Assembly: GCA_022865625.1 (NCBI GenBank)
Contig: JALHTB010000166.1
Location: 22,120 to 86,119 of the forward strand
Reading direction: 5' to 3'
Length of the DNA: 64,000 bases
Source of the DNA: Candidatus Bathyarchaeota archaeon
GTDB lineage: Archaea; Thermoproteota; Bathyarchaeia; 40CM-2-53-6; FEN-987
Part shown: in pieces, positions 44,755 through 47,700 of the stretch
How positions within the stretch are numbered: the stretch's first letter is position 1
Layout of the letters: each line of letters starts with the position of its first letter
Position numbers and translations under genes: made by a program
Notes under the pieces: generated by a model
Database searches by the model: none
Told to the model about the DNA's origin: nothing
What the model saw: only the letters and a program-made list of their open reading frames with translations

Positions 44755-47700
44755 CTAGTAAGCTTGGCATGATAAGCCACCTGACGAATGGCCTGGCTCG
44801 AGCGCTGAAGAAGGGCGTGGCAAGCTGCGATATGCTCCGGGTAGGCGCATGCTGCCTTCGATCCGGAGATACCCGAATGGGACTTCCCTCCACGGGTGAT
44901 ACCTGTGGAACTCCCAACTGGGAGGGGAAACCTTCCGAACGGAAGCATCCAAGTAGGAAGAGGAAGGGAAACTAACTAGGATTCCCTGAGTAGCGGCGAG
45001 CGAAAAGGGAAAAGTCCAAACTGAACCTGCACGGGAAACCGTGTAGGGATGTGGGGTTGTAGGGCCCGACTGCGTTCTCGCATGTGAAGTCGAAATGGCC
45101 TGGAACGGCCTACCGTAGAGAGTGACAGTCCCGTAGACGTAAGCATGCAGGATTTGGGTTGGGATCCCTGAGTACTACGCCTCAATTATGGCGTGGAAAA
45201 CTGGGAGGAAACAACTTCCAAGACTAAATACGTCTCGAGACCGATAGCGCACTAGTACCGTGAGGGAAAGCTGAAAAGTACCCCGGAAGGGGGGTGAAAA
45301 GAGCCTGAAATCAGGTGGTCAATAGCGTGTACGGTTCGAAAGGATAGATCCCCTCGAAAGGAGACCGTGGCAACGCGGCAGTACGACGAGGGGGGACCAG
45401 AATCGTATGATCAGTTTCGTACCACTGGCCGGGGAGTTCATCTTCGTGGTGAGGTTAAGGGCGCAAGGCCCGAAACCGTAGGGAAACCGATTGTCCGCAC
45501 CGCCGCAAGGCGTGAGGGACGGGATCTGAAAGGGTCTGTAATCACGGGGATGACACTAGAAACCAAGTGATCTAGCCCTGAGCAGGGTGAAGCCGGGCGA
45601 AAGCCCGGTCGAGGCCCGAAAGGGTGTTGACGTGCAACTCACTCCTGTGACTTGGGGCTAGGGGCGAAAGACCAATCTAACTTGGTGATAGCTAGTTCCC
45701 GCCGAAATATCTCTAAGGATAGCCTGGCCTGAGGCTGCCGTTGGGGTAGAGCACTGATTGGGAAACAAGGACCCGAAAGGGTCCACTTTCCATTCAAACT
45801 TCGAATCCATCGGCGCCGTAGAAGGCTGGAGGCGGGCATGGGGCGTAAGGTCCTATGTCGCGGGAGGAACAACTCCGACTAGGGTTAAGGTCCCAGAATC
45901 CTGACTAAGTGTAGAAATAGAAAGCTGTCGTCAACCAGAGACAGCTGGAAGGTAGGCTTAGAAGCAGCCATCCTCCAAGCAGTGCGTAACAGCTGACCAG
46001 CCGAGGTTGGAGGCGCTGAAAATGAACGGGGCTAAGTCAGGTACCGATACCCTAGGGCACGGCCAAGAGCCGTGTCGGTAGGCGGGCGTTGGGGTTGGGT
46101 GGAAGCTGGGTTGTGAAATCCAGTGGACCGGCCTCAAGTGTAGATCCCGGTGGTAGTAACAGCGTTAGAGGGGTGAGAATCCCCTCCGTCGAAAGGGCAA
46201 GGGTTCCCCGGCAATGCGTCGTCAGCCGGGGGTAAGTCGGTCCTAAGGCAAGTCTCAATCGAACTTGTCGAAAGGGAAACCGGTTAAAATTCCGGTACTA
46301 TGGAGGTACACGCGGCAACGCAAGCTTCCGATCTGACGCTTCGGGATAGGTCGAGCGGGGTCGTCGCCCTGTTTAACCTTTGAAATCCGGGAAGTACCGT
46401 AATGGTGAGAACCGGATGAAAGTGGGAATAGCCGCCCGTTTTAGGGCGGTTCGGCTGATTTCTGGAGTCACTGAAAAGGGTCGGAGGAAGGATCCTCCGT
46501 GACCGTACCTAGATCCGACACAGGTGCCCCTAGGTGAGAAGCCTAAGACGTATCGGGTGGAACTCAGGCGAGGGAACTCGGCAAATTAGCCCCGTAACTT
46601 TGGAATAAGGGGTGCCTGAAGCTCTAGCTTTGCTGGGGCGACAGGTCGCAGTGACAAGGGGGAGGCGACTGTTTAATAAAAACATAGGGGACCGCTAGCC
46701 CGAAAGGGTTTGCACGGTCCTTGAATTCTGGCCAGTGGCGGTACCTTAAAATCGGGTTCAACCGATCGAAGGGCCGCTAAACGCCGGGAGTAACTCTGAC
46801 TCTCTTAAGGTAGCCAAATGCCTTGTCGGGTAAGTTCCGACGTGCATGAATGGATCAACGACCCCCCCGCTGTCCCCGCCTGGGGCCCGGTGAACCCACA
46901 TAACCTGGACGAACAGTCCAGGATCTTCCAGCGGGGCGAGAAGTCCCCGTGGAGTTTTACTGCAACTTGTCGCTGGATTGTGATTGCGGGTACAGAGCGT
47001 AGGTGGGAGCCGTCGAGGTCGACCTCTTCGGGGGTCGATGGAGGCGCCAATGTAACACCACCTATCTGTGATTACAGTTCTAACTGGACCACAAGTCCGA
47101 GACAACGGCAGGCAGGCAGTTTGGCTGGGGCGGCACCCCCTTGAAAAGATATCAAGGGGGCCCAAAGCTCGACTCATCCGGGACAGGAACCCGGAGTAGA
47201 GGGCAAGACCAAAAGTCGGGTTGACTGGATCCTCATCAGCAAGGGATCCAGAGGCGAAAGCCGGGTCTAGCGATCATTCATGTCCCCATTGTTGGGGGCT
47301 GGATGTGACAGAAAAATTACCCCGGGAGTAATTGGCTCGTCTCCTCTGAGAGTCCCCATCGACGAGGAGGATTGGTTCTCCGTCGTCGTCCCTTCCCATC
47401 CTGGGCCCGCAGCAGGGCCCAAGGGCGCGGCTGTTCGCCGATCAAAGGGGAATGCGAGATGGGTTTAGACCGTCGCGAGACAGGTCGGACTCTACCTGCT
47501 GGAAGTGCTGGTCGCCTGAGGGGAAGGCGCCCCTAGTACGAGAGGAACGGGGTATCGTAACCTCTAGTTTACCGGTTGTCCGACAGGGCAATGCCGGGCA
47601 GCCACGTTGTCGAGGATAAGGGCTGAAAGCATCTAAGCCCGAAGCCTCTCCCGAAAATAGGCGGCCAATCCTTTCCAAGGGACTCGGCAACGAGCCCCAG

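What the first reader, a model, noticed from the sequence alone, without database searches (positions are those of the whole stretch)
47324..47389. Peptidyl-transferase loop of 23S rRNA has changed several near-invariant residues, mostly in partner pairs
Seen: where archaea normally read GGGATAACTGG, this gene reads GGGAGTAATTGG (47324-47335); where they read CCTCGATGTCGG, it reads CTCCGTCGTCGT (47378-47389). By hand alignment with E. coli numbering this gives G2447A, A2448G, C2452U, C2499U, U2500C, A2503U, U2504C and G2509U, with A2450 and A2451 kept. A2062 is U at 46944. The changes look coordinated: C2452/U2504 become U/C, A2062/A2503 become U/U, and G2447, A2448 with C2499, U2500 become A, G with U, C. 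Established: these residues line the active site and drug-binding crevice, and single changes at 2447, 2452, 2503 and 2504 alter antibiotic response in model organisms. A natural ribosome with all of them would be remarkable.
Basis: partly seen in the sequence, partly recalled or inferred. Interest (0 to 1): 0.82.

Follow-up and report, generated by a model that had tools for sequence, protein, structure and literature searches.

The report
Remodelled ribosome active site in Bathyarchaeia
A group of uncultured archaea has a ribosome whose near-universal active-site RNA is changed at about a dozen positions, several of which switch together, in a form related to but different from the odd active site already solved in the heat-loving archaeon Pyrobaculum.

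Summary
The 23S gene (44760-47813) carries A2062U, G2447A, A2448G, C2452U, C2499U, U2500C, A2503U, U2504C and G2509U. An error or pseudogene is very unlikely: 13 of 256 genomes of a relative's class show the same 2447-2452 letters, none with a canonical match beside it by that pattern. The window nests among Bathyarchaeota-labelled MAGs. In 86 rows 2447, 2453, 2509 and 2579 switch together without exception; 2504, 2500 and 2055 mostly follow. Most of these lie in one published contact network around C2452/U2504. Thermofilales-, Nezhaarchaeota-, Methanomethylicia- and Thermoproteales-like genomes share the core, including Pyrobaculum calidifontis, subject of a 2025 'divergent active site' paper I could not read. 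The Bathyarchaeial form differs: 2452U, 2453U, C2501, 2499U/G, 2573U, usually U2062 with U/C2503. A real, new variant of a recently recognised kind; the 'partner pair' reading holds only partly.

The parts
44760..47813 (+). 23S rRNA gene carrying the altered peptidyl transferase centre; the only LSU rRNA match in the window
   Evidence: RF02540, 2785.7 bits, full model 1-2987
43046..44579 (+). 16S rRNA gene, about 180 bp upstream of the 23S, no tRNA found between them
   Evidence: RF01959, 1448.1 bits; no tRNA match there by Rfam or ARAGORN
46937..46944 (+). 2055-2062 stretch: C2055, G2058 (common in archaea), U2062 at 46944
47327..47333 (+). 2447-2453: A2447, G2448, U2449, A2450, A2451, U2452, U2453
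47377..47389 (+). 2497-2509: U2497, C2498, U2499, C2500, C2501, G2502, U2503, C2504, G2505, U2506, C2507, G2508, U2509
47453..47453 (+). C2573U, in the set shared with the B24/SKYB62 group only
   Evidence: 13 of 49 switched rows; the one unswitched row with T, L132, is interrupted near there by an insert
47459..47459 (+). C2579A, Watson-Crick partner of U2509
   Evidence: 47389 pairs with 47459 in the RF02540 consensus structure printed (parsed); U-A in 49 of 49 switched rows, G-C or G-U in 37 of 37 others

Best explanation
This is the genuine 23S rRNA of an uncultured Bathyarchaeia lineage whose peptidyl transferase centre has been remodelled in its second shell. Inner catalytic residues (A2450, A2451, G2505, U2506, U2585, A2602, P loop, G2553) are kept. 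The layer that holds positions 2452 and 2504, the A-site cleft wall, has been replaced as a set: 2447A, 2452U, 2453U, 2499U, 2500C, 2504C, backed by a swapped helix pair (U2509-A2579), C2055, U2573 and U2062 with U2503 at the tunnel entrance. Shown: the letters, their recurrence in relatives, and the exceptionless joint switching of 2447, 2453, 2509 and 2579. Inferred: that it is expressed and works; that the set restores an equivalent scaffold by different base contacts, so peptide bonds form normally while cleft shape, drug binding and nascent-chain sensing differ; and that it evolved stepwise and then became locked by epistasis.
For: Numbering and letters. Full set in 7 of 38 rRNA loci (four of the seven, titled BA_3, BA_7, BA_12 and BA_24, look like one project) and its 2447-2452 letters in 13 of 256 class members, none with a canonical match by the same pattern. 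RF02540 in the genomes behind the 7 loci: one match in 5, one gene in three abutting pieces in 1, none in 1; one match each in 5 other genomes (only part of the candidates was scored in 11 of 12, so copy counts are lower bounds). Window in a 10-row clade, 100/100, on a 23S tree without the PTC columns. Scan of 23S positions against 2447A: 2453, 2509, 2579 1.000, 2504 0.856, 2500 0.607, 2055 0.573 (not corrected for kinship). PMC4652758 (passages) reports hydrogen bonds in a simulated H. marismortui 50S for 2504-2452, 2504-2500, 2500-2452, 2500-2055 and 2499-2453, and 2447-2451, 2447-2500 and 2453-2500 in a double mutant. All 51 rows with C2504 have a pyrimidine at 2055; of 35 with U2504, 20 have A, 7 G, 7 C, 1 N. 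P. calidifontis, whose ribosome is solved, carries the related core.
Against: No expression, read-level or structural data for this lineage. The window's genome is not held, so copy number is inferred from relatives. Few independent switches: 3 supported pairs (5 on the best tree), below the 6 needed for the sign test. The scan is partly kinship: positions 1102 and 1087, far from the centre, score 0.632 and 0.601. Coupling is not universal: DPANN loci L009, L023, L036 have 2447C with U2504; L107 and L149 have C2504 without 2447A; 8 unswitched rows have C2500. E. coli data forecast trouble: U2500 is listed as highly inflexible, and A2503 to U or C shows strong negative epistasis with U2504 (PMC10146877 passages).
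Confidence: 0.83

Rival explanations
1. Selection by PTC-targeting natural products: the set is intrinsic resistance kept because neighbours make A-site cleft inhibitors.
For: In T. thermophilus single changes C2452U and, weakly, G2447A give tiamulin resistance and U2504C gives chloramphenicol resistance (PMC7345174 passages). Titles of some window relatives carry depth tags such as 20cm, which I take as soil.
Against: The same core occurs in Thermofilales and Thermoproteales-like genomes, hot-spring groups by general knowledge; U2500C and U2504C give no tiamulin resistance; the compensated 2509-2579 pair has no obvious drug role.
Confidence: 0.15
2. Heat adaptation relic: the set arose in a thermophilic ancestor for PTC stability and persists in descendants that live at moderate temperature.
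For: Many core-bearing genomes are labelled Thermofilaceae or Thermofilum, thermophiles by general knowledge.
Against: 23S G+C is 0.565 in the window and 0.565-0.624 in its 10-row clade, while 10 canonical crenarchaeal rows reach 0.607-0.695 without the set, so heat does not require it.
Confidence: 0.2
3. Non-functional second copy, pseudogene, chimera or sequencing error.
For: Only the oddity itself; G013 shows two slightly different variant hits near contig starts.
Against: Recurrence in 13 genomes, one 23S match in most relatives tested, intact catalytic residues, compensated 2509-2579.
Confidence: 0.03
4. Drift in a fast-evolving rRNA with no real coordination.
For: Other conserved positions changed too: the window differs (once by a gap) at 29 of 701 positions conserved in unswitched rows and E. 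coli. 2448, 2452, 2499 and 2503 also vary outside the set.
Against: 2447, 2453, 2509 and 2579 switch without exception in 86 rows although the state changes at least five times on the best tree.
Confidence: 0.1

Closest known systems
Divergent peptidyl transferase centre of Pyrobaculum calidifontis (Nissley et al. 2025, doi 10.1038/s41564-025-02065-w; title seen in reference lists only; PDB 9e6q, 9e71, 9e7f by uL3 match)
   Same: A2447, non-A 2453, C2500, C2504, U2509 with A2579, C2055, U2062 (L189)
   Different: Window has G2448 (A there), U2452 (C), U2453 (C), U2497 (A), U2499 (C), C2501 (A), U2503 (A), U2573 (C), and lacks that group's G2444A
PTC haplotype of Thermofilales-, Nezhaarchaeota- and Methanomethylicia-labelled genomes
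   Same: Same core switch
   Different: C2452, C2453, A2501, A2503; with the Thermoproteales-like rows, 36 rows share one network haplotype
Bathyarchaeota B24 / SKYB62 type (L040, L013)
   Same: A2447, U2452, U2453, C2500, C2501, C2504, U2509, U2573, A2579
   Different: G2499, A2497; L040 has A2448; L013 keeps A2062 and A2503
Laboratory PTC mutants of E. coli and Thermus
   Same: Single changes at 2062, 2447, 2452, 2500, 2503 and 2504 are reported (passages)
   Different: There mostly single changes; here about a dozen at once in a natural gene
Archaeal A-loop C2554/C2555 variants (Nissley 2023, PMC9976906; abstract, one section and passages seen)
   Same: Natural archaeal variation in the PTC region
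   Different: Different site; the window has U2554 and U2555

Membership tests
Archaeal LSU rRNA (RF02540) | Full-length match to the covariance model over gathering score | tested here: met
   2785.7 bits against 50, positions 1-2987
Archaeal LSU rRNA (RF02540) | Catalytic inner-shell residues A2450, A2451, G2505, U2506, U2585, A2602 present | tested here: met
Pyrobaculum/Thermofilum-type divergent PTC (features as found here, not from the unread paper) | G2447A with U2500C, U2504C and G2509U/C2579A | tested here: met
   window and all 49 switched rows
Pyrobaculum/Thermofilum-type divergent PTC (features as found here, not from the unread paper) | C2501A with C2452 and A2453C | tested here: not met
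   window has C2501, U2452, U2453; 36 of 36 rows of that type have A, C, C
Pyrobaculum/Thermofilum-type divergent PTC (features as found here, not from the unread paper) | Switched lineages form one clade | tested here: not met
   All 49 switched rows as one clade rejected, p-AU 6.5e-06; window clade plus B24/SKYB62 group not rejected, p 0.208. This does not exclude one early switch with later reversals
Pyrobaculum/Thermofilum-type divergent PTC (features as found here, not from the unread paper) | Same three-dimensional rearrangement as in the solved ribosome | not testable with these tools
   RNA coordinates not available here
rRNA pseudogene or minor paralogue | A canonical copy elsewhere in the genome | tested here: inconclusive
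   None seen in relatives (within their limits); the window's own genome is not held

The most novel reading that the evidence does not exclude
The peptidyl transferase centre has several self-consistent second-shell architectures, and archaea have moved between them as blocks more than once. The Bathyarchaeial one is a separate architecture rather than a subtype of Pyrobaculum's: it gives up C2452, listed elsewhere as 100% conserved, and rebuilds the A-site cleft and the 2062/2503 tunnel gate. The near-universality of the PTC then reflects epistatic lock-in rather than chemical need, and these cells would read stalling peptides and cleft drugs differently.
Probability: 0.45. Interest if true: 0.8.

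Novelty: new variant of a known kind. Interest (0 to 1): 0.62.

Why it matters
The ribosome's active site is the standard example of frozen RNA. A clade that swapped about a dozen of its residues, with relatives that did not, gives natural before-and-after pairs for asking which PTC bases are chemically needed and which are locked by their neighbours. It carries changes and combinations that an E. coli library study calls inflexible or negatively epistatic (PMC10146877 passages), so it tests whether compensation across several segments opens PTC sequence space. That bears on ribosome engineering and on drug specificity.

Tried and rejected
Shifted numbering: rejected. Pseudogene, paralogue, assembly error: very unlikely. 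Partner pairs C2452/U2504 and 2447-2448/2499-2500: rejected as stated, since 37 of 51 rows with C2504 have C2452 and 2448 and 2499 change 12 and 9 times. Strict 2062/2503 coupling: not supported; U2062 with A2503 in 11 rows; among switched rows 2503 U/C goes with U2062 in 12 of 12, but three unswitched rows (L107, L149, L150) have a changed 2503 with A2062; of 5 independent pairs that differ at 2503, 2062 goes the same way in 1.8 on average. A uL3 residue that tracks the switch: none among ungapped columns, 17 switched against 13 other proteins (30 of the 32 proteins found, the two without a locus left out); 4 columns mark the window clade alone, as any clade could. One origin of all switched lineages: rejected as a clade; Thermofilum-type rows alone p 0.012, with the half-switched group p 0.074, so two to five switches, or fewer with reversals. 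Viral contigs: no match for one 26-base pattern.

Faulty steps of mine: the pattern had a wrong gap and missed its own positive control (0 of 201), redone with another pattern. One search used a wrong motif and crashed; searches took a wrong reading frame for two genomes (G012, G006), corrected. Much of the independent-pairs output was cut; I use only the pairs I saw. Rows dropped: 8 of 46 loci as not rRNA; L105, L137, L145 short and L060 unmatched; L199 unmatched and L200 short.

Full report
What is there. The window is archaeal: Rfam finds one 16S (43046-44579), one 23S (44760-47813) and, just downstream, an archaeal RNase P RNA (47952-48238). Rfam's archaeal LSU model and a MAFFT alignment to an E. 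coli 23S agree on the numbering. Relative to the usual centre the gene has A2062U, G2447A, A2448G, C2452U, A2453U, A2497U, C2499U, U2500C, A2503U, U2504C, G2509U, C2573U and C2579A. U2449, A2450, A2451, G2502, G2505, U2506, U2585, A2602, the P loop (G2251-G2253) and G2553 are kept. G2058 is common in archaea (32 of 38 unswitched rows) and not part of the finding.

An artefact is very unlikely. A scan of a collection with one genome per species for 2447 not G, with set flanks, gave 46 loci; 8 were not rRNA and 38 were. By my count of the rows, 7 carry the window's haplotype (L004, L008, L014, L016, L017, L021, L041; five titled Candidatus Bathyarchaeota, one 'bacterium', one 'uncultured archaeon'), 2 a sister form (L013, L040), 16 a Thermofilum-like form, 10 a Parvarchaeota/Nanoarchaeota form and 3 others. 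The seven come from about four projects by accession and title, so they are not seven independent assemblies. In the class of L014's genome, 54 of 256 genomes matched a neutral pattern: 13 show GGGAGTAATTG, 41 show G2447, none shows both; the other 202 gave no match and say nothing. RF02540 in the genomes behind the seven loci found one match in 5, one gene in three abutting pieces in 1 and none in 1, and one match each in five other genomes; only some candidates were scored in 11 of the 12, so these are lower bounds. G087 has two pattern hits and G013 two, all variant. The window's own genome is not held.

Where it sits. A 23S tree without PTC columns (86 rows, 2479 columns) puts the window in a 10-row clade of this haplotype at 100/100. 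That clade lies in a 23-row group (96/82) with canonical rows L097-L104, L107 and L201 and the B24/SKYB62 type. The highest identity to another row is 87% over 2129 tree columns. The label Bathyarchaeia rests on record titles, not on a formal classification.

The switch. I took 2447A as the mark (49 of 86 rows) and scored E. coli-numbered 23S positions filled in at least 70 rows by mutual information. 2453, 2509 and 2579 reach 1.000, as 2447 itself does; 2504 0.856; 1102 0.632; 2500 0.607; 1087 0.601; 2055 0.573; the next is 0.485. The score does not allow for kinship, and 1102/1087, which I place from recall in the GTPase-centre region, show that lineage signal can score high. 2509-2579 pair in the RF02540 consensus structure and read U-A in 49 of 49 switched rows and G-C or G-U in 37 of 37 others. 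Most other core positions match a published contact network: in a simulated H. marismortui 50S, U2504-C2452, U2504-U2500, U2500-C2452, U2500-A2055 and C2499-A2453 are hydrogen-bonded, and a double mutant forms 2447-2451, 2447-2500 and 2453-2500 bonds; the paper also says that 2055 influences the U2504 conformation (PMC4652758, abstract and passages). Here all 51 rows with C2504 have a pyrimidine at 2055; of 35 rows with U2504, 20 have A, 7 G, 7 C and 1 N. So the recurring unit looks like a second-shell network, not separate pairs.

Haplotypes over 2055/2447/2452/2453/2499/2500/2501/2504: Thermofilum/Pyrobaculum type C-A-C-C-C-C-A-C in 36 rows; window type C-A-U-U-U-C-C-C in 10; B24/SKYB62 type (U or C)-A-U-U-G-C-C-C in 3; a half-switched group G-G-C-A-C-C-A-U in 7, with U2500C and C2501A only; 30 others, mostly canonical. 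The half-switched group and L107 (A2503U plus U2504C on an otherwise canonical centre) suggest steps by which the block can be entered or left; direction is not shown. In an even draw from the phylum, 98 of 398 genomes gave 99 matched rows; sorted by eye, 36 are switched, 10 half-switched and 53 not (sums checked), and I saw no row that mixes 2447A with U2504 or G2509.

How often. The fewest changes of the mark on the tree is 5. All switched rows as one clade is rejected (p-AU 6.5e-06); the window clade with the B24/SKYB62 type is not (p 0.208). The Thermofilum type alone gives p 0.012, with the half-switched group p 0.074. So about two to five switches, or fewer with reversals. Only 3 supported independent pairs exist (5 on the best tree). 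Given 2447, the partner went the same way in 3.0 of 3 for 2509 and 2453, 2.9 for 2504 and 2.5 for 2500, against 0.9 for 2448; fewer than 6 pairs cannot be significant.

Against the block idea. DPANN loci have 2447C with U2504 (L009, L023, L036), so the coupling is specific to the A allele or to these lineages. L107 and L149 have C2504 without 2447A, and 8 unswitched rows have C2500. 2448 and 2499 change freely (12 and 9 changes). 2452U also occurs on otherwise near-canonical centres (L108, L150) and 2452G in L149, so C2452 is not invariant even outside this clade. U2062 occurs with A2503 in 10 switched rows and L138.

Relation to what is known. The genome G289 has a contig of 2,009,313 bases, the length I recall for P. 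calidifontis, and its uL3 matches the chain of PDB 9e6q/9e71/9e7f over all 338 chain residues with 754.3 bits. PMC12605026 names 9E71 as the P. calidifontis ribosome (passages). Its 23S (L189) has the Thermofilum-type core plus G2444A and U2062. [quoted passage not shown] I saw its title in reference lists and nothing of its text. The kind is therefore known; whether the Bathyarchaeial form is in that paper I cannot say. A search for Bathyarch + peptidyl transferase + 23S rRNA found one paper, on rRNA circularization, whose passages I saw do not describe it.

Function. Laboratory data give conflicting forecasts. A2062U is as fast as wild type in vitro (1.02 against 1.03 uM protein/h, PMC7049736 passages). 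In a tethered E. coli ribosome U2500 is listed as highly inflexible, and A2503 to U or C shows strong negative epistasis with U2504 (PMC10146877 passages). In Thermus, C2452U and weakly G2447A give tiamulin resistance and U2504C chloramphenicol resistance, while U2500C and U2504C do not give tiamulin resistance; C2452 is listed as 100.00/100.00 conserved (PMC7345174 passages; I did not see what the two figures stand for). The simplest reading is that the network is re-knitted so that the inner shell is held in place, and that single-site costs vanish in the full context. Drug pressure or heat ancestry may have started it; neither is shown. The window's 23S G+C is 0.565, and 10 canonical crenarchaeal rows with 0.607-0.695 manage without the set.

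uL3, whose finger reaches the centre (recalled; in PMC7345174 it contacts U2504 and U2506), has no ungapped column that separates 17 switched from 13 other proteins; 4 columns mark the window clade, among them R-to-Q in the YNKR motif (10 of 10; R in 18 of 20 others, I or L in the half-switched group).

Verdict: real, coordinated, shared by a clade, and a new variant of a recently recognised kind.

Noticed in passing
47952-48238: Archaeal RNase P RNA lies about 140 bp downstream of the 23S gene on the same strand, followed by an archaeal prepilin peptidase (48355-49161).
   Followed up: no
63693-63785: Rfam finds a 93-nt tRNA on the minus strand (49.2 bits) that ARAGORN does not report; an intron is my guess.
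   Followed up: no
L006, L010, L012, L022, L029, L032, L033, L038, L042, L045: Parvarchaeota/Nanoarchaeota-labelled genomes have an even stranger centre: 2447C, 2448G, 2452G, 2497C, 2499A, 2500C, 2501A, 2503U, 2504C, 2505U, 2507U.
   Followed up: partly
L107 (G043): A2503U plus U2504C on an otherwise canonical centre, with U2055: a possible intermediate, or an error in one genome.
   Followed up: partly
L125-L131: A group with U2500C and C2501A only, G2055 and a G2509-U2579 wobble; it sits among switched lineages.
   Followed up: partly
L108 (G236), L150 (G622): C2452U on otherwise near-canonical centres.
   Followed up: no
L210, L213-L215, L217, L218, L220, L221, L223, L224: uL3 YNKR to YNKQ in all 10 window-clade proteins; I or L at that place in the half-switched group (L225, L230).
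   Followed up: partly
G004:C38:132824-137628, G009:C5:43392-47664, G005:C4:98819-102636: 23S matches spanning 4805, 4273 and 3818 bp in relatives, probably with introns.
   Followed up: no
L138: A row with canonical 2447-2504 letters reads U at both 2058 and 2062.
   Followed up: no
L182-L198: These 17 Thermoproteales-like rows also carry G2444A; in L189 and L191 the 2063-2070 stretch reads CCCTATGG for the usual CCCCGTGG, which looks like a compensated pair.
   Followed up: no
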